From Kordiimonas sp. SCSIO 12603 (GTDB lineage Bacteria > Pseudomonadota > Alphaproteobacteria > Sphingomonadales > Kordiimonadaceae), in assembly GCF_024398035.1 (NCBI RefSeq), contig NZ_CP073748.1, forward strand, positions 1,773,520-1,837,519: a stretch of DNA of 64,000 bases, written 5' to 3'. The notes under the pieces are model-generated. The model searched no databases. It had not been told where the DNA came from and worked only from the letters and a program-made list of their open reading frames with translations. Made by a program: the position numbers and the translations under genes. Positions 55,898 through 64,000 of the stretch are shown piece after piece. Positions within the stretch are counted from its first letter, which is position 1. Each line of letters starts with the position of its first letter.

Positions 55898-57811
55898 TTA
55901 TTTTGTTTTAAGGTAAGTATAACCCTTAAGGCAATTCTCATAAAAGTCAGTAAGCTTCACGCCTTGCCTTGATTTAATAGTGCCTGCTGCAATTTCCTGA
56001 TCAATGGCATCTTTCACACGGTCAGCCATAGCGCCCGGGTTATACTGCATGATCTTCAGGACCTGTGCGGCGGAGGAACCCTCTACTACTTCTTCGATAT
56101 AAAAATCGTTAGGATCATCATCATCGCAGGAAACATGTACCTCATTCAGGCGACCAAAGAGATTATGCATATCGCCCATCACGTCTTGGTAGGCACCAGT
56201 TAGGAATAAGCCGATATAATATGGTTCTTCCTCGTTAAGCGCGTGAAGAGGCAGGGTGCTATTGGTAACAGTATCACCTATGAACTGTGCAATTTTACCG
56301 TCGCTGTCACAGGTGATATCCACGAGCGAGCAGTTTTTTGTCGGTTCTTCATTCAAGCGGCTGATGGGCACAACAGGGAGTACCTGATCAATCGCCCAGC
56401 TATCAGCTGCAGATTGGAAAACAGAGAAATTACAGAGATATTGGCTTGATAAGCGCTCAGTAAGGCTGGTGCTTTCTTCCGCCATACTGTCGTGGGTATC
56501 CAGATTACCTTCCACCCGGCGCATTACAGTCCAATACATGGTTTCAATGCGGCCAAGTTCCTTAAGGCCGATCACGCCCAGTTTGAAACCAGCTTCCGCA
56601 TCTTCCTTGATTTTCTGAGCTTCGTTATGAGCAGCCTGATAGTTTTGAAGGTCATGCAGATTTTCAACCAAATCACGCATGTTGGTTACAAGAATATGTT
56701 CATCTTCAACAGCTGCAGTTGGCACAAGGCCGGTATCGTTTTTAATCTCACCGATCACTTTGGTTACAACGCAGCTATGATGTGCGGTGATAGCGCGGCC
56801 GCTTTCGCTAACGAGTGTCGGGTGCGGTGCGCCTTCAAGGTCACATACCTGTTTGGTACCGTAAACCACAGATTCTACATATTCCTGCAGGGAATAGTTG
56901 CGAGAGCTTTCGCTGGTAGAACGGGTGCCGTCATAATCAATGCCGAGGCCGCCACCTACATCAAGATATTTGAGCGGTACACCAAGTTTATAGAGCTTGG
57001 CATAAATGCGTGCAGCTTCGTCTATAGCATCCTGTACGGAACGAATATCAGTGAGCTGGCTACCGATATGGAAATGAAGCAGGGAGATACAATCCAGATA
57101 TCCCTCAGCTTCGATCAGCTCAACGGCATTCAGGATTTCAGAAATACTGAGGCCGAATTTAGCGCGTTCTCCGCTGGAGCTTTCCCATTTACCGCGGCCT
57201 GTAACGCGCATTTTCGTGCGAAGGCCGATAATTGGCTTCACTTTCATCTCATTTGCGAGATCCAAAAGCGGCTTGATTTCAGAAAACTTCTCGATCACTA
57301 CCACTGTATTACGGCGAAGTTTATTACCAAGCAGGGCAAGGCGCAGGAACTCTTCATCTTTATAACCGTTGCAGATGGTAAGTGCTTCAGAACTGGTTTT
57401 GTAGGCAAGAACAGAAAGGAGTTCGGCTTTTGAACCAGCTTCCAAGCCAAAATGGAAGGATGCGCCAGCGCGGGTGATTTCATCCACCACTTCGCGCATT
57501 TGGTTCACTTTGATCGGGTAAACACCGCGGTAGGGTGCGTCGTATTTTGCTTCTTCGATTACTTCACCAAAGGTGCGGTTCAAACGTTCTACCTGACTGC
57601 GGAGAATGTCATGGAATCTGAGTACTACGGGAAATTGGATACCTTCCTGAACAATCTCATCGAGCACAGCACGCATATCAATACGAACGCTGTGATCTGT
57701 TTCAACGGGCAAAACATGCATATTGCCGTTTTCGCCAATATCAAAGAATGTGCCACCCCACCGACTTACACGGTAGATGTCTTCAGATTGTTCAATAGTC
57801 CAGTTTTCCAA
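55898..57811 (-). CDS. speA: Biosynthetic arginine decarboxylase
   Basis: A 637-residue PLP enzyme of the alanine-racemase-like fold (fold III). The PLP lysine is K101 in GVYPIKVNQ; the barrel then has ALTICNGYKDEEFLRLAL, IGLRTKMRVTGRGKWESSSGERAKFGLS, ISLLHFHIGSQLTDIRSV, LDVGGGLGIDYDGT and VSESGRAITAHHSCVV, all conserved in SpeA. It decarboxylates arginine to agmatine, the first step of polyamine synthesis. The agmatinase gene is 12 bases upstream, so the two form one transcript and cover arginine to putrescine. Confidence 0.96.
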   Translation of the reverse strand: MENWTIEQSEDIYRVSRWGGTFFDIGENGNMHVLPVETDHSVRIDMRAVLDEIVQEGIQFPVVLRFHDILRSQVERLNRTFGEVIEEAKYDAPYRGVYPIKVNQMREVVDEITRAGASFHFGLEAGSKAELLSVLAYKTSSEALTICNGYKDEEFLRLALLGNKLRRNTVVVIEKFSEIKPLLDLANEMKVKPIIGLRTKMRVTGRGKWESSSGERAKFGLSISEILNAVELIEAEGYLDCISLLHFHIGSQLTDIRSVQDAIDEAARIYAKLYKLGVPLKYLDVGGGLGIDYDGTRSTSESSRNYSLQEYVESVVYGTKQVCDLEGAPHPTLVSESGRAITAHHSCVVTKVIGEIKNDTGLVPTAAVEDEHILVTNMRDLVENLHDLQNYQAAHNEAQKIKEDAEAGFKLGVIGLKELGRIETMYWTVMRRVEGNLDTHDSMAEESTSLTERLSSQYLCNFSVFQSAADSWAIDQVLPVVPISRLNEEPTKNCSLVDITCDSDGKIAQFIGDTVTNSTLPLHALNEEEPYYIGLFLTGAYQDVMGDMHNLFGRLNEVHVSCDDDDPNDFYIEEVVEGSSAAQVLKIMQYNPGAMADRVKDAIDQEIAAGTIKSRQGVKLTDFYENCLKGYTYLKTK

Positions 57812-57823
57812 TTCAGATAATCC

Positions 57824-58735
57824 TTACTTATCAAGAACAAGAATAAGTTCACGTACCACTTTTGCAGCAAATACTTCGCTGTTGCCAGTGCTGTCGATGG
57901 GCGGTGATAATTCAACTACATCCGCACCTACAAGGTTTTTCTCGCGGAGAATTTTTACAAGACTGATAAATGAGTGGAAATCCTCACCGCCCGGTTCTGG
58001 CGTACCTGTGCCCGGGAAAATGCCCGGGTCAAAATAATCCAGATCAAGGGTCAGGTAAATTGGGCGTTCAGCAGGAATAGCTTTCACTCGTTCTAAAAAC
58101 TCGTCACGGCTGGTGGCGATAGTTTTGTGCTCACGCATATATTCATATTCTTCACGGGTGCCTGAACGGATACCGTACTGAATAAGTTCGTTCTGATCTG
58201 TGAAATGATCAAGCGAGCGGCGGATGATGGATGCGTGGCTATAGTGATAGCCTTCATAACCATCCCGCAGGTCAGCATGAGCATCAAGGTGTAGTAACAC
58301 CATATCAGGGTATGCTTCTAAATGCCGTTTGATAGGCGCATAGGAAATGCTGTGTTCACCACCAATGGTGAGGATTCGCACTTTGTCACCAGCCAGATCA
58401 ATATCCTTGAAGATAGTTTCGAAATCATTGGATGCTGATTTCCACTGTTCTTCAATCCCTGTTGAGGCATCAAGCTTCAGATTGCCAAGGTCATAAAACT
58501 TGTGATCTTCCGTACAGCCGTTCTGGTAGGGTGAAAAGCTTTCAATACCATCTGATACATACCTGAGAGCATCAGGACCAAAGCGGGTTCCCTTGCGAAA
58601 ACAAGCAGTTCCATCAAATCCGAAGCCGATCAAGTGCGTGCTGTTTCGGTATAGGGCACCACCTTCTACGGCGCAGTAATAAAGATCATCCGGTGTGTTC
58701 AGAGCGACAGTGATGTCGCAAATCTTTTCGCTCAT
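57824..58735 (-). CDS. speB: Agmatinase
   Basis: A 303-residue ureohydrolase. The binuclear manganese site motifs are intact: GGEHSIS (H128), HLDAHADLRDGYEG (D151, H153, D155) and LTLDLDYFDPGIFPGTGTPEPGG. The YSHAS loop (H167) is typical of agmatinases. It hydrolyses agmatine to putrescine and urea. First gene of the speB-speA unit; divergent from speD-speE with 120 bases between, which holds a hairpin. Confidence 0.94.
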   Translation of the reverse strand: MSEKICDITVALNTPDDLYYCAVEGGALYRNSTHLIGFGFDGTACFRKGTRFGPDALRYVSDGIESFSPYQNGCTEDHKFYDLGNLKLDASTGIEEQWKSASNDFETIFKDIDLAGDKVRILTIGGEHSISYAPIKRHLEAYPDMVLLHLDAHADLRDGYEGYHYSHASIIRRSLDHFTDQNELIQYGIRSGTREEYEYMREHKTIATSRDEFLERVKAIPAERPIYLTLDLDYFDPGIFPGTGTPEPGGEDFHSFISLVKILREKNLVGADVVELSPPIDSTGNSEVFAAKVVRELILVLDK

Positions 58736-58784
58736 TTTTACTTTCCTAAGCAGAAGAATACTGACAGTATCATTTTCTTGCTCG

Positions 58785-58808
58785 CATACCTTAAAAAGTT
58801 AGGGTATG
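58785..58808. promoter_or_regulatory. Inverted repeat in the speB / speD divergent promoter
   Basis: CATACCTTAA and TTAGGGTATG pair over 10 positions with one wobble around a 4-base loop. It lies midway between the two start codons (49 bases from speB, 47 from speD), where a shared operator would be expected. Confidence 0.45.
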
Positions 58809-58855
58809 TCATCCCCCCAATTTTACCGAGGACTATTTCTTTGTGGAGCTAGGCA

Positions 58856-59818
58856 TTGTTCTTTGAAGGATCAGAAAAAAAAGCTGAAATCATCTTAAGC
58901 AGTAACAAGATTAATCTGCTTGATGATACGTATAACGATTTCTGGGCAGAAATGGTGGAAAAATGCCATGCACAGATACTTTCCAGCACAACAAATGATC
59001 GCTGTAAGGCATTTCTACTGTCGGAATCCAGTTTGTTTGTCTGGTCAGACAGGCTGCTTATTCTTACGTGCGGCACAACACGCCTTGTGAAGGCTGTGGA
59101 ATATTTCCTGCAAAAGTTTGGGACAGATGCGGTAGAGCAGGTGATCTACCAGCGCAAGAATGAGTATTTCAGCCACAAACAACATAGTAATATCCTAGAT
59201 GATGTAGCGCTGCTTAATGAATATGTGCCGGGATCAACCTTCCGTTTCGGAGAGCTTGATAGCCATCATGGGTATCTTTTCAGTGTGGATAATGATTTCC
59301 GTTCGCAGGATAGCGACCGCACGTATGAATTGCTGGCGTATCAGATTGGCCGTGAAGCTTCCACGAAGTTGACAGACCCGTCACTTTCTTGCGCAGATGT
59401 ATTTGAATTCCTTGAGCTCGACGAGATTATCCCAGGTTTTCAGGTAGATGATTTCCTCTTTGAGCCATTCGGTTATTCACTGAATGCTATCAAAGGGGAT
59501 GATTACCTGACCATTCACATTACGCCGCAGGCGAACAGCAGTTATGTGAGCTTTGAAAGTAGTGTGGACCTTATCGAACATGCGCCGCGTATCCTAAGGG
59601 TTCTGCGTCCAGCATCGTTTGATTTGATGACTTATAATGATTTTGATTTTGCTGACCGCATCAGCGAAATGATCCCTGCAGAATATGTAAGCAAGGAGCT
59701 GGTGAGCTATAAAATGCCGTCCGGTTATGATGTGAAATTCGCAAGCTTCCTGCGCCCCCAAACGAAATTTACTGAACCAACCAAGGTTTTTGCCCAAGGA
59801 GAAGATTATGTACTCTGA
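58856..59818 (+). CDS. speD: S-adenosylmethionine decarboxylase, eukaryotic-type
   Basis: A 320-residue pro-enzyme with a TTG start 7 bases after GGAG; an in-frame TAG just upstream rules out a longer product. It resembles the animal/plant class rather than the short bacterial class: MFFEGSEKKAEI at the N-terminus, the self-cleavage motif LSESSLF (cleavage expected between E57 and S58, S58 becoming the pyruvoyl group), TCGTTRLVKA with C72, YQRKNEYF, and GYSLNAIKGDDYLTIHITPQ, where S208 and H221 match the processing residues of human AMD1 (S229, H243). It makes decarboxylated AdoMet for SpeE. The speE start overlaps its end by 11 bases. Confidence 0.92.
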   Translation: MFFEGSEKKAEIILSSNKINLLDDTYNDFWAEMVEKCHAQILSSTTNDRCKAFLLSESSLFVWSDRLLILTCGTTRLVKAVEYFLQKFGTDAVEQVIYQRKNEYFSHKQHSNILDDVALLNEYVPGSTFRFGELDSHHGYLFSVDNDFRSQDSDRTYELLAYQIGREASTKLTDPSLSCADVFEFLELDEIIPGFQVDDFLFEPFGYSLNAIKGDDYLTIHITPQANSSYVSFESSVDLIEHAPRILRVLRPASFDLMTYNDFDFADRISEMIPAEYVSKELVSYKMPSGYDVKFASFLRPQTKFTEPTKVFAQGEDYVL

Positions 59819-60671
59819 TCTATGGATTGAAGAAAAATTTGAAGACTTTCTGGGCCTGCGCCTGAAGGTGGAAAAAGTGCTGTTCTCAGGCAAAAGTGAG
59901 TTCCAGAGCGTGGATGTGGTGGAAACCAAGGGCCACGGTAAAATGCTCTTGAACGACGGCCTGATTATGGTGACGGAAAAAGATGAAATCGCCTACCATG
60001 ATATGATCGCCCACGTGCCGCTTTTCACACACCCAAATCCGAAGAAGGTTTTGGTAATCGGCGGTGGTGATGGTGGTACTGCCCGAGAGGTGATCCGCCA
60101 TAAAGGCGTTGAAAAATGCGTGATGGTGGAAATTGATGCGATGGTGGTTGATGCCTGCAAAGAGCATATCCCGCAAACATCTTCTGCGCTTGATGATCCG
60201 CGTATAGAACTTATCATCGGAGACGGTGTGAAATATGTGAAGGAAACATCAGAGAAGTTTGATGTGATCCTTGTCGATTCAACAGATCCGATTGGCCCAG
60301 CTGCCCCGCTTTTTGGTGCTGAGTTTTATACAGATGTTATGAACTGTCTGTCTGATGATGGTATCGTTGTTTCACAAGGTGAAAACAGTTGGTATGCCCT
60401 TGATGTGCAGCAGTCACTCCTCAAAGTGCTGAACGACGTTTTTGAAAATGTATGGCTTTATAATTTCTCAAACCTTACCTATCCGGGCGGGATGTGGAGC
60501 TTTACGTTCGCTTCAAAGAAATATGACCCTATCAAGGATTTTGATGCGAGCCGTGTGGCGGCTTCTGGCCTTGAGTTTGATTATTATAATGCCCCGCTGC
60601 ATACAGGTGCATTTGCTATCCCAAGCTTTGCCTTGAAAGGCCTTGATGGGCTTATCAAAAACGGTAAGTAG
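59808..60671 (+). CDS. speE: Spermidine synthase
   Basis: A 287-residue aminopropyltransferase from the ATG at 59808, after AAGGAG. The Rossmann dcAdoMet motif is VLVIGGGDGGTAREVIRH, the acidic ribose contact is MVEIDAMVV, and the active-site loop is DVILVDSTDPIGPAAPLF, with QGENSWY after it. It transfers the aminopropyl group from decarboxylated AdoMet to putrescine. It overlaps the speD end, so substrate supply and use are coupled. With speB-speA on the other strand it completes arginine to spermidine. A terminator follows. Confidence 0.95.
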   Translation: MYSDLWIEEKFEDFLGLRLKVEKVLFSGKSEFQSVDVVETKGHGKMLLNDGLIMVTEKDEIAYHDMIAHVPLFTHPNPKKVLVIGGGDGGTAREVIRHKGVEKCVMVEIDAMVVDACKEHIPQTSSALDDPRIELIIGDGVKYVKETSEKFDVILVDSTDPIGPAAPLFGAEFYTDVMNCLSDDGIVVSQGENSWYALDVQQSLLKVLNDVFENVWLYNFSNLTYPGGMWSFTFASKKYDPIKDFDASRVAASGLEFDYYNAPLHTGAFAIPSFALKGLDGLIKNGK

Positions 60672-60757: not shown

Positions 60758-63700
60758 TTAGAAACGGAAGCGTGCCCGGATTGTGGCTGCGTGACTATCA
60801 AAGCCAGACCGGAACTCCCCATCGTAGCCGAGGGAAATTGTAGTGCCGCGCTCGGCGAGCAGCGCAACAGAAGCATCCACTTCAAAACTTGATTGGCTAG
60901 GGTCAGCACCAATCAGGTTGAAGTTGTTGGAGCCGGCGAAAGAAGCACCCAATGTGCGCTCATCACCAGCAAAGTCGTAGTAATATCCAACAGAAAGTTG
61001 AGGCAGGAGCTTGTAGCTGCCGAAGTCAGTCGGAGCAGCGAATTTCACGCCCACACCACCTTCGAAGTAGCTTACGCTATCTGCTTCAATATTAAGGCCA
61101 AGGCCGCCTGCTTCCTGATAATCATCCTGATCAACAGACGCATACTGAAGGCTTGCAAATGGTGTTACCTCAATGCCTGAGAAATCAGTTTTGATACCAC
61201 CAACAACCTTTGCGGAGAATTCGTTCACATCAAACTCACCACGGATAGTTTCATCAAATGTGCTAAGGCGTGCGCTGTCTGCATTACCAAACACATAAGA
61301 AAGTGAGCTGTTCAGGAAGGATGTGCCGTCATCATAGCCTGCGTAAGCGTTGATGCTGTAGCTGTCGATGCCAGTTACTTCACCAGCACCGCCTACCTCA
61401 TCGATATCAATATCTGAGTATGAGAAAGCTACACCAGCGCGAACATCATCACTAACTGCGGTATCAAGACCAATCACAAAACCATATGCATCAGCATCAT
61501 AACCAGTTTGGGAAAGGTTGTTTTCACCATCTTGGTCCGCTGTACGGCCAAATGCCTGACCCCAAAGACCAAAGCCTGCGTTTTCACCGAAACCAGAGAA
61601 ACGATCTTCGATTAGAGATAGAACCTGGTTTTGTGTTTCATACACTTCACGTACGATACCAGCATTCAATGTTGGTAGAAGGCTTTCAGTTGCACCAGTG
61701 AACTGATCGTTGCTTGTGAAGCCGTTTACAGCGTTTGCGATTGTGCCAAAAGCGGTATTCCCTGAGCCTGATGTAAGCGCGCCAGTGAAAGCAGAAGCGA
61801 AGCCGTTGATGTTTGCATCTGAAGATACGTTGCTTAGGTTAGCAACTGTTGGTGTAAGCGTGATGCTGTTCCCTGTCGTTGCCAAGGCAAAATCAACAAG
61901 GAAGCTGTTATCCCCGGTGAAGTTTGCTGAACCTGTTAGGTCACCAGTTGCTGTAAGCAGTGTTTGTGTTGTACCGAAGTTCACTTGCGTTACATCAGCA
62001 ATATCTTGCGCAATTGTGCTGTTAGCACCAAGAGCCACATCACCAGTTACTGCTAGCGTACCGTCCTGTGTGAAATTCAGGCCACCGTTTACTGCAACAT
62101 CACTGTTGATAGTGCGTGCCGCATCAACAACAAGGTTTGCTGCATTGATGTTTACCTGATTATCACCAGTGCCTAGATCAATGTTACCGTTGATCGCGCC
62201 ACCCGTGATGTTTAGAACATCATTACCGCTACCTGTTAGAACGTCACCGTTCAGTGCACCACCAGTTTGGTTGATGATTACATTACCTAGAGATGTACGT
62301 GTATCAATCGCTGCTGTTGCACCGCTGATGGTACCAGAGTTTGTGATGGAACCCGTGAACGTGATGTTTTCAAGCAAGATACCTGCTGAAGTTTCAGAAG
62401 CAACTGCGCCTGAGTTATCAATTGTTAGGTCCACTTCAGGGCGCATCATGTTCGGCGGGTAGAAAGCACGGATACCAGCAGAAGCACCAGACGCCAGAGC
62501 ATCACCACGGCCCTGAATTGTGCCTGAGTTAGTGATTGTGTGCGTGCGAGTACCAGCTAGTGCCTGAATGGATACACCAGAACCGTTATTGCCAGCGCCT
62601 GCATCAATAGTACCAGTGTTATTCAGTGTGATGTTGTTTGCTGTACCGTCAAAGTAAACAGTACCATTACGCTGGTCACCAGTACCGAGAATGGAGCCTG
62701 AGTTATTAACAACAAGGCCTGTACCGTCGATGTTCAGTGCGCGGCTATCTGATGAAATCGTACCAGCGTTGTTTACAACACCGCCTGTGTGATCAGCACC
62801 GCCAGCAGGAACTGGGTTGCCAAAGTATAGGCCATTGTTCACGCCAGAGATAACACCACCAGCTTCGTTGGTAAGTGTACCTTGGAAGCTAACGCCGTTC
62901 ACGAAGCGGATACCAGCTGTTGTGCCAGCCGTTGCCTCGCTGTTGATCAGGCCGGAGTTAGTAATTGTACCAGTGAACAGGCCAGTTGTTGAACCGTCCA
63001 GCGCGCCATCAACACGTGTACGTTCAAAACGGATACCGTCACCCGCAGTTGCAGCACCCGCGCTTGCCTGACCGCGGCCCTGGATTGTGCCTGAGTTTGT
63101 AATGGTGAAATCGTTACCATCTGCAGAAAGCTGGGCAGAGAAACCTGCACCTTCGTTGCCTGCGCCGGCATCGATTGTGCCGCTGTTGTTCAGGTTGAAA
63201 TCCTGAGCAGTGATGTCAGCATACACAGTACCGTTACGCTGGTTGCCTGTACCAAGGATGTTGCCTGAGTTAACGACTGAAAGATTTGTACCGTCAATGT
63301 TCAGTGCGCGGCTGTCAGATGAGATCGTGCCACGGTTGGTGAGACCACCACCAAAATCTACACCATCAACCAAACCACCATCGTGGTTACCTGTACCGAA
63401 ATACACACCGTTATTAACGCCAGAGATCGTGCCGCCCTCTTCGTTTACAAGTGCGCCTTGGAAGTTAACACCATTCACCGCTCTGAAGCCGCCAGTTGTG
63501 CCAGCTGTTGCTTCACTGTTGATTGTGCCAGAGTTCGTGATAACACCAGTGAATGTACCTGTTGAGGAGCCGTCGAATGCACCATCAACACGGGTGCGCT
63601 CTAGCCTGATACCATCACCAGCCGTTGCTGTGCCTGCGCTGGCTTGGCCGCGGCCTTGGATTGTACCTGAATTATCGATCACAAAGTTGCTGCCATCAGC

Positions 63701-64000
63701 AGATAACTGTGCAGAGAACCCAGCACCTTCGTTGCCCTCACCAGCATCAATTGTACCGCTGTTGTTCAGCGTGAAGCTTTGTGCAGTAATATCGCTATAT
63801 ACAGTACCATTACGTTGGTTGCCTGTACCAACGATGTTGCCTGAGTTGTTTACAACAAGACCTGTACCGTCGATGTTCAGCGCGCGGCTATCAGAAGAGA
63901 TAGTACCAGCGTTGTTTACAACACCACCTGTGTGGTCTGCACCGCCAGTTGGAACCGCGTTACCGAAGTATAGGCCGTTGTTCACACCAGAGATTGTGCC
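60758..64000 (-). CDS. Autotransporter (type V secretion) with repeat-rich passenger, 5' end beyond window
   Basis: An open frame from the right edge to the stop at 60758; at least 1080 residues. The C-terminal 280 or so residues form an autotransporter beta-barrel (GFGLWGQAFGRTADQDG, alternating hydrophobic strands, and the final ATIRARFRF ending in Phe as required for outer-membrane assembly). A linker with YETQNQVLSLIEDRFSGFG precedes it. The passenger is a beta-helix of short NSGTI- and NNxGxI-type rungs, arranged in long tandem repeats of about 190 residues, then a distinct stretch (INQTGGALNGDVLTGSGNDVLNITGGAING). It is a surface protein, perhaps an adhesin. The signal peptide and start lie outside the window. 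Confidence 0.9.
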   Translation of the reverse strand, partial: GTISGVNNGLYFGNAVPTGGADHTGGVVNNAGTISSDSRALNIDGTGLVVNNSGNIVGTGNQRNGTVYSDITAQSFTLNNSGTIDAGEGNEGAGFSAQLSADGSNFVIDNSGTIQGRGQASAGTATAGDGIRLERTRVDGAFDGSSTGTFTGVITNSGTINSEATAGTTGGFRAVNGVNFQGALVNEEGGTISGVNNGVYFGTGNHDGGLVDGVDFGGGLTNRGTISSDSRALNIDGTNLSVVNSGNILGTGNQRNGTVYADITAQDFNLNNSGTIDAGAGNEGAGFSAQLSADGNDFTITNSGTIQGRGQASAGAATAGDGIRFERTRVDGALDGSTTGLFTGTITNSGLINSEATAGTTAGIRFVNGVSFQGTLTNEAGGVISGVNNGLYFGNPVPAGGADHTGGVVNNAGTISSDSRALNIDGTGLVVNNSGSILGTGDQRNGTVYFDGTANNITLNNTGTIDAGAGNNGSGVSIQALAGTRTHTITNSGTIQGRGDALASGASAGIRAFYPPNMMRPEVDLTIDNSGAVASETSAGILLENITFTGSITNSGTISGATAAIDTRTSLGNVIINQTGGALNGDVLTGSGNDVLNITGGAINGNIDLGTGDNQVNINAANLVVDAARTINSDVAVNGGLNFTQDGTLAVTGDVALGANSTIAQDIADVTQVNFGTTQTLLTATGDLTGSANFTGDNSFLVDFALATTGNSITLTPTVANLSNVSSDANINGFASAFTGALTSGSGNTAFGTIANAVNGFTSNDQFTGATESLLPTLNAGIVREVYETQNQVLSLIEDRFSGFGENAGFGLWGQAFGRTADQDGENNLSQTGYDADAYGFVIGLDTAVSDDVRAGVAFSYSDIDIDEVGGAGEVTGIDSYSINAYAGYDDGTSFLNSSLSYVFGNADSARLSTFDETIRGEFDVNEFSAKVVGGIKTDFSGIEVTPFASLQYASVDQDDYQEAGGLGLNIEADSVSYFEGGVGVKFAAPTDFGSYKLLPQLSVGYYYDFAGDERTLGASFAGSNNFNLIGADPSQSSFEVDASVALLAERGTTISLGYDGEFRSGFDSHAATIRARFRF
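62845..64000 (-). repeat. Long tandem repeats in the autotransporter passenger
   Basis: The same landmark (CAGAGAT within the SGVNNG codons) recurs at 62845, 63421 and 63988, giving unit lengths of 576 and 567 bases (192 and 189 residues), with the first unit running off the window. Units differ by point changes and a few short insertions. Confidence 0.85.

What the first reader, a model, noticed from the sequence alone, without database searches (positions are those of the whole stretch)
58856..59818. Eukaryotic-type AdoMet decarboxylase in a bacterial polyamine cluster
Most bacterial SpeD proteins are short; this 320-residue protein has the architecture and the diagnostic motifs of the animal/plant enzyme: MFFEG near the start, LSESS cleavage site, TCGTT, and processing Ser and His at the expected places. 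One position next to the processing serine is changed (human PCGYSMN becomes PFGYSLN). It is embedded with speE and divergent from speB-speA, so it is functional in context. It raises the question of gene transfer from eukaryotes or an ancient bacterial origin of this class.
Basis: partly seen in the sequence, partly recalled or inferred. Interest (0 to 1): 0.75.

Follow-up and report, generated by a model that had tools for sequence, protein, structure and literature searches.

The report
Animal-type spermidine enzyme in a bacterium
This marine bacterium makes spermidine with the two-domain enzyme type normally seen in animals, plants and fungi, but the gene belongs to an already reported bacterial branch and sits in a spermidine gene cassette shared with other marine bacteria, so it is a new member of a known kind rather than a surprise.

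Summary
Window 58856-59818 encodes a full-length class 2 (eukaryotic-type) S-adenosylmethionine decarboxylase: PF01536 194.5 bits (cut-off 22.2); AlphaFold2 model pLDDT 93.1 with human AMD1 as best PDB match (TM 0.83-0.86); the self-cleavage and proton-transfer residues are all present. It lies in a complete arginine-to-spermidine cassette (speA-speB divergent from speD-speE). No class 1 SpeD and no second SpeE matched in this genome.

The suggested surprise is mostly explained. Bacterial class 2 enzymes are in print (PMC10407285, passages). In my tree the gene falls in a bacterial clade apart from the four eukaryotes tested (99/94). PF01536 occurs in 67 of 290 Bdellovibrionota genomes, 39 of 147 genomes drawn around a Colwellia, and 2 of 19 genomes of its own genus. 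The cassette, with the same 11-base speD/speE overlap, recurs in Colwelliaceae and Kangiella, so Kordiimonas most likely got it from bacteria. "PFGYSLN" is clade variation: 11 of 58 bacterial rows keep PCGYS.

Open: whether class 2 arose in eukaryotes (published view) or bacteria; four eukaryotes cannot root the tree.

The parts
58856..59818 (+). speD2: class 2 (eukaryotic-type) S-adenosylmethionine decarboxylase proenzyme, 320 aa, TTG start
   Evidence: PF01536 E 3.5e-57; AF2 model and Foldseek to human AMD1; residues
59024..59029 (+). codons of E57 and S58, the predicted self-cleavage site; S58 would become the pyruvoyl group
   Evidence: aligned to human E67/S68, invariant in 58 of 58 bacterial rows; cleavage itself not tested
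58845..58858 (+). GGAG ribosome-binding-like site and TTG start codon; in-frame TAG at 58850-58852 forces the TTG
   Evidence: sequence; other loci with TTG/GTG at the same place
59808..60671 (+). speE: spermidine synthase, 287 aa, overlaps speD2 by 11 bases
   Evidence: TIGR00417 and NF002010 above cut-off; same overlap in 27 of 80 relatives' loci
57824..58735 (-). speB: agmatinase
   Evidence: PF00491; TIGR01230 above cut-off
55898..57811 (-). speA: biosynthetic arginine decarboxylase
   Evidence: TIGR01273 and NF003763 above cut-off
58736..58855 (.). 120-base intergenic region between the divergent gene pairs, presumably holding both promoters
   Evidence: sequence only; promoters not tested

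Best explanation
The gene encodes a working class 2 AdoMet decarboxylase. The proenzyme cuts itself between E57 and S58, S58 becomes the pyruvoyl cofactor at the start of the alpha chain, and the enzyme turns S-adenosylmethionine into decarboxylated AdoMet. The overlapping speE uses that to make spermidine from putrescine, which speA and speB make from arginine through agmatine. It appears to be this genome's only AdoMet decarboxylase. The four genes are a cassette that this Kordiimonas lineage acquired from other bacteria: from the pool in Colwelliaceae-like Gammaproteobacteria and Bacteriovorax-like Bdellovibrionota, not directly from a eukaryote. Shown by computation: homology, fold match, residue conservation, gene order, clade. 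Inferred: self-cleavage, activity, transfer, and probable stimulation by putrescine.
For: Family and fold. Residues: F7, E11, E15, E67, S68, C82, F223, S229, H243 and E256 invariant in 58 of 58 bacterial rows; D174, T176 and E178 in 55, 57 and 56 of 58. Pathway: speE, speB, speA above an equivalog cut-off. Sole enzyme: PF02675 (class 1) absent from G000; only one SpeE match in G000. Cassette: speD2-speE adjacent in 44 of the 80 best loci, with divergent speB and speA too in 23, same overlap in 27. Patchiness: 2 of 19 in the genus, 0 of 40 others in family and order, 1 of 385 in the class sample, which is the window's own genome. The window's SpeE is 76-82% identical to that of the gammaproteobacterial cassettes but only 31-38% to the SpeE matches of four other Kordiimonas genomes. 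Bacterial clade.
Against: The four gene trees do not agree on the nearest donor: SpeD and SpeE put Kordiimonas with the Gammaproteobacteria, SpeA leaves it outside the Colwelliaceae/Kangiella group (98), SpeB is unresolved (quick trees). The cassette's GC (0.460) does not differ from the window's (0.466), so the transfer is not recent or came from a donor of like composition. No empty site was found: three other Kordiimonas regions share only the pirin gene. E247 to Q and K80 to L have untested effects. The protein is below the cut-off of TIGR00535 (152.2 against 233.15).
Confidence: 0.9

Rival explanations
1. Direct transfer of an AMD1-like gene from a eukaryote into Kordiimonas.
For: Only 2 of 19 genomes of the genus have it.
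Against: 52-59% identity to most gammaproteobacterial cassette copies against 33% to human; nested in a bacterial clade; arrives with a bacterial-type SpeE, SpeB and SpeA in the same order.
Confidence: 0.02
2. Class 2 arose in bacteria, perhaps in or near the Bdellovibrionota, and eukaryotes received it, the reverse of the published direction.
For: Bacterial rows form one clade beside, not inside, the four eukaryotes tested (99/94); Bdellovibrionota hold deep, patchy diversity (67 of 290) and members that keep PCGYS (11 of 30).
Against: Four eukaryotes cannot root the tree and their inner order is not firm (AU p 0.149 and 0.091). Bacterial class 2 is not nearer to class 1b than eukaryotic class 2: profile E-values 8.5e-4 and 1.6e-4 against 3.2e-5. 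PMC10407285 states the opposite direction from a phylogeny I could not see.
Confidence: 0.12
3. The enzyme feeds a polyamine-independent reaction, as reported for AdoMet decarboxylases beside MFS-spermidine-synthase fusions.
For: Such roles are reported (title of Li 2019; PMC11237479 passages). 36 of the 80 best loci have no adjacent cassette-type speE, so some relatives may do something else.
Against: Here the overlapping partner is an ordinary spermidine synthase above its equivalog cut-off, beside speA and speB.
Confidence: 0.04
4. The protein has changed substrate and decarboxylates arginine or ornithine, as reported for some class 1b relatives.
For: Such changes are widespread in class 1b (PMC10407285 abstract).
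Against: The genome has speA for arginine and speE needs decarboxylated AdoMet; no other AdoMet decarboxylase was found; the residues checked match AMD1.
Confidence: 0.03

Closest known systems
Human AMD1 (PDB 1jl0, 1msv), class 2 AdoMet decarboxylase
   Same: Two-domain fold (TM 0.83-0.86), single processing serine in the N-terminal half, the self-cleavage and proton-transfer residues, and the acidic putrescine-site residues D174, E178, E256
   Different: About 33% identity; shorter; C226 to F, E247 to Q, K80 to L; TTG start; encoded in an operon
Bacterial class 2 AdoMet decarboxylases (Li et al. 2019, cited as reference 46 in PMC10407285)
   Same: Same class in bacteria; reported functional (2019 abstract, recalled) and of eukaryotic source (statement in PMC10407285)
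   Different: The 2019 paper is not held, so I cannot say which species it covers. An alphaproteobacterial copy in a speA-speB/speD-speE cassette may or may not be in it
Colwellia/Thalassotalea/Kangiella speA-speB/speD2-speE cassettes (such as L012, L014, L021)
   Same: Same four genes, orientation and 11-base overlap
   Different: Different class of Pseudomonadota; SpeD 52-59% and SpeE 76-82% identical
Bacteriovorax-type Bdellovibrionota speD2-speE pairs (such as L054, L056)
   Same: speD2 next to speE of the same type in all 17 such loci among the 80
   Different: No overlap; speA and speB, where found, lie downstream
Class 1b SpeD (Thermotoga maritima 1tlu, 1vr7)
   Same: One-domain relative; Foldseek E 7e-5 to 5e-4; profile match in the C-terminal domain
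   Different: About 120 residues, processing serine in a different sequence context, works as a dimer (recalled)

Membership tests
Class 2 AdoMet decarboxylase (PF01536) | Pfam model above its gathering score | tested here: met
   194.5 bits against 22.2
Class 2 AdoMet decarboxylase (PF01536) | Fused two-domain fold | tested here: met
   AF2 pLDDT 93.1; Foldseek 1jl0_A E 8.9e-28 over 318 columns. The model is a prediction whose alignment held 52 bacterial rows and no eukaryote
Class 2 AdoMet decarboxylase (PF01536) | Single processing Glu-Ser in the N-terminal half; Cys82, Ser229, His243 equivalents | tested here: met
   E57/S58, C72, S208, H221 (human roles recalled)
Class 2 AdoMet decarboxylase (PF01536) | Self-cleavage and AdoMet decarboxylation | not testable with these tools
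   needs expression and assay
Class 2 AdoMet decarboxylase (PF01536) | Putrescine-activation site, as in human (not shared by all class 2) | tested here: inconclusive
   D174, T176, E178, E256 and E15 kept; K80 is Leu
TIGR00535 equivalog (NCBIfam) | Score above 233.15 | tested here: not met
   152.2. Four other bacterial members tested also fail (128.9-156.3), while a yeast sequence recalled from memory scores 552.3; the cut-off seems set on eukaryotes. I therefore file it as class 2, not as a TIGR00535 member
Class 1 SpeD (PF02675) | Match to the class 1 model | tested here: not met
   Pfam scan of the protein gave PF01536 alone at E up to 0.001; no PF02675 match in G000
Polyamine-independent MFS/SpdSyn system | MFS-spermidine-synthase fusion as neighbour | tested here: not met
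   The neighbour is a free-standing speE
Gene taken directly from a eukaryote | Branches within eukaryotes | tested here: not met
   Bacterial clade, 100/99 and 99/94, with only 3 and 4 eukaryotes

The most novel reading that the evidence does not exclude
Class 2 AdoMet decarboxylase is a bacterial invention, kept in predatory Bdellovibrionota, that was passed to the stem of eukaryotes and, at least twice, to marine Gammaproteobacteria and from that pool to Kordiimonas; human AMD1 would then be of bacterial origin.
Probability: 0.12. Interest if true: 0.75.

Novelty: new member of a known kind. Interest (0 to 1): 0.3.

Why it matters
Taken alone the gene is an ordinary working enzyme in an unusual host. 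Its value is as a pointer: the bacterial class 2 branch is larger and deeper than a few stray transfers would suggest (67 of 290 Bdellovibrionota genomes; 296 relatives in one genome-collection scan, of which 80 were seen). A tree that combines this branch with broad eukaryote sampling would directly test whether the human drug target AMD1 is a eukaryotic invention, as published, or came from bacteria. It also gives a compact bacterial AMD1 homologue for studying self-cleavage and putrescine activation.

Tried and rejected
Mobile-element origin: no relative was found in viral contigs, plasmids or phages, at those searches' sensitivity. Compositional sign of recent transfer: none. Empty insertion site: not found, since pirin neighbourhoods in three other Kordiimonas genomes are not syntenic. 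Co-transfer of a eukaryotic SpeE: rejected; the window's SpeE is nearest to 1inl and 1iy9 (bacterial by recall) at 273 and 267 bits, ahead of plant and animal enzymes at 235 or less (organisms recalled), and the Shewanella partner is nearest to 3o4f (E. coli by recall). That bacterial class 2 might be nearer to class 1b: not supported. A single origin of all Pseudomonadota copies: rejected by AU test, p 0.0094. Resolving the eukaryote root: failed (p 0.149 and 0.091). A weak class 1b hit of the bacterial profile in the PDB (2iii, E 0.44) is not evidence alone. Literature: the key 2019 paper is not held; searches for a Bdellovibrio, Shewanella or Kordiimonas report listed none, but they list only 12, 10 and 8 of the papers that matched.

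Full report
What is there. The ORF at 58856-59818 is open for 320 codons and starts with TTG, forced by an in-frame TAG two codons upstream. It matches PF01536 along its length (E 3.5e-57, 194.5 bits) and human AMD1 in the PDB (E 1.1e-30). AlphaFold2 with 52 bacterial sequences gives pLDDT 93.1 and pTM 0.92. The first four Foldseek hits are full-length human AMD1 chains at TM 0.83-0.86; potato and T. brucei enzymes follow, and class 1b SpeD of Thermotoga matches one domain.

Residues. In an alignment of 58 bacterial rows, human AMD1, potato, T. brucei and a recalled yeast sequence, the window has the equivalents of F7, E11, E15, E67, S68, C82, F223, S229, H243 and E256, all invariant in 58 of 58 bacterial rows. 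The putrescine-site residues D174, T176 and E178 are present here and in 55, 57 and 56 of 58. Their human roles are recalled, though the PDB titles name D174N, E178Q and E256Q putrescine mutants. Differences: K80 is Leu (I or L in all 58 bacterial rows), E247 is Gln (44 of 58), and C226 is Phe.

Context. speE overlaps speD2 by 11 bases; speB and speA run the other way. Each is above the cut-off of an equivalog model. Own-genome searches found no class 1 SpeD and one SpeE match only. The simplest reading is a full route from arginine to spermidine with this enzyme as the only AdoMet decarboxylase.

Host. The genome's nearest relative with the gene, G016, has a contig of the same length, and a class 2 gene 98% identical at the protein level, as Kordiimonas laminariae NZ_JAKQZA010000007.1, and it is of the same genus, so the window is from a Kordiimonas. 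The two agree at 94.9% over 13,116 bases through the cassette and its flanks.

Distribution. PF01536 matched 2 of 19 genomes of the genus and 0 of 40 others in family and order, 1 of 385 in the class sample (the window's own genome), and 10 of 398 in the phylum sample, the window's own and G016 included. A scan of the GTDB genome contigs found 296 loci encoding a relative; only the best 80 were kept and seen. They are Colwelliaceae, Psychrosphaera, Kangiella, Shewanella, Ferrimonas, Marinomonas, Endozoicomonas, Bdellovibrionota and a few others. Bdellovibrionota: 67 of 290 genomes, two of them with short matches only; one search resampled the same phylum and is not independent. Around Colwellia hornerae: 39 of 147. 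None of the 14 control genomes matched.

Trees. With 87 bacterial rows and 3 eukaryotes the two sides separate at 100/99; the window and K. laminariae fall in a 49-row clade (100/99) otherwise of Gammaproteobacteria. With 58 bacterial rows (30 from Bdellovibrionota) and 4 eukaryotes the split is 99/94; the window's 9-row group is joined by Bacteriovorax-type rows (100/95, 91/73, 97/92), and the Shewanella/Ferrimonas/Marinomonas/Endozoicomonas group by another Bdellovibrionota row (100/98). Holding all Pseudomonadota rows together is rejected (p-AU 0.0094). Read with eukaryotes as outgroup, the gene moved from Bdellovibrionota into Pseudomonadota at least twice. Many deep forks in Bdellovibrionota are unresolved, and several rows have long branches.

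Cassette. Of the 80 loci, 44 have speE next to speD2, 23 also have divergent speB and speA, 4 more have speB only, and 36 have no adjacent cassette-type speE; 27 share the 11-base overlap. Trees of SpeE, SpeB and SpeA (quick method) all put Kordiimonas with the cassette-type genes and far from the Shewanella type, but differ on its nearest kin: SpeE inside the Gammaproteobacteria (82), SpeA outside Colwelliaceae and Kangiella (98), SpeB open. The donor is therefore not pinned. In Shewanella the same class 2 enzyme sits with E. coli-like SpeE and SpeA, so the decarboxylase has been paired with more than one partner.

What is known. PMC10407285 (outline, abstract, passages and part of the reference list seen) says some bacteria encode a class 2 AdoMetDC acquired from a eukaryotic source, citing Li et al. 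2019, which is not held. I recall its abstract as reporting functional but phylogenetically limited bacterial class 2 enzymes. PMC9992855 (passages) found no class 2 in viruses, in line. So the kind is known; what I add is this cassette in an alphaproteobacterium, the Bdellovibrionota count, the two-entry pattern and the start codons. I did not find these, but the 2019 paper could hold some of them.

Direction of the first transfer. Not settled. The bacterial clade lies beside the four eukaryotes rather than inside them, which neither view excludes. The order among the eukaryotes is weak (AU p 0.149 and 0.091 for alternatives). Bacterial class 2 is no nearer to class 1b than eukaryotic class 2, which gives the bacterial-origin reading no help.

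Start codons. Of 80 loci, 78 gave a callable start: 42 TTG, 13 GTG, 23 ATG; one GTG (L076) is a bad call in a disrupted frame. Partner speE: 4 of 56 non-ATG. But speA has 16 of 38 and speB 10 of 35 (one further speB start was not a start codon), and in 30 Bdellovibrionota loci, by another calling rule, 13 are non-ATG. The rule picks the nearest ATG, GTG or TTG, so it leans towards finding one.

Verdict. A real class 2 AdoMet decarboxylase in a bacterial spermidine cassette; new member of a known kind. Interest 0.3; the bold reading, bacterial origin of AMD1, 0.12 likely and 0.75 interesting.

Noticed in passing
window 58856; loci L011-L090: Class 2 speD genes near this one often start with TTG or GTG (55 of 78 callable starts, one a bad call), while the partner speE rarely does (4 of 56); speA (16 of 38) and speB (10 of 35) lie between. 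Possible translational damping.
   Followed up: partly
L104:1483-2574 and L105:775-1824 (minus): In two Bdellovibrionota genomes that also hold class 2, a class 1b-like SpeD domain (TIGR03330 72.9 and 56.9 bits, both below the 75.65 cut-off) is fused to the membrane part of a PRK03612-type aminopropyltransferase, beside a multi-span membrane ORF that I did not search.
   Followed up: partly
L036 and L059 (Litorilituus lipolyticus): One genome has two class 2 genes, one in the spe cassette and one without speE. Copies without speE in L027 and L038 lie next to a beta-lactamase-family/DUF3471 gene; their role is unknown.
   Followed up: partly
L018:6973-7149, L019:7238-7417: In two Colwellia loci only about 60 residues of speE match after an intact speD2, which may be a decayed speE.
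   Followed up: no
window 60758-63985 (minus): Repetitive autotransporter-like protein next to the cassette; its C-terminal part is 88.5% identical to the K. laminariae copy, while the spe genes are 98%.
   Followed up: no
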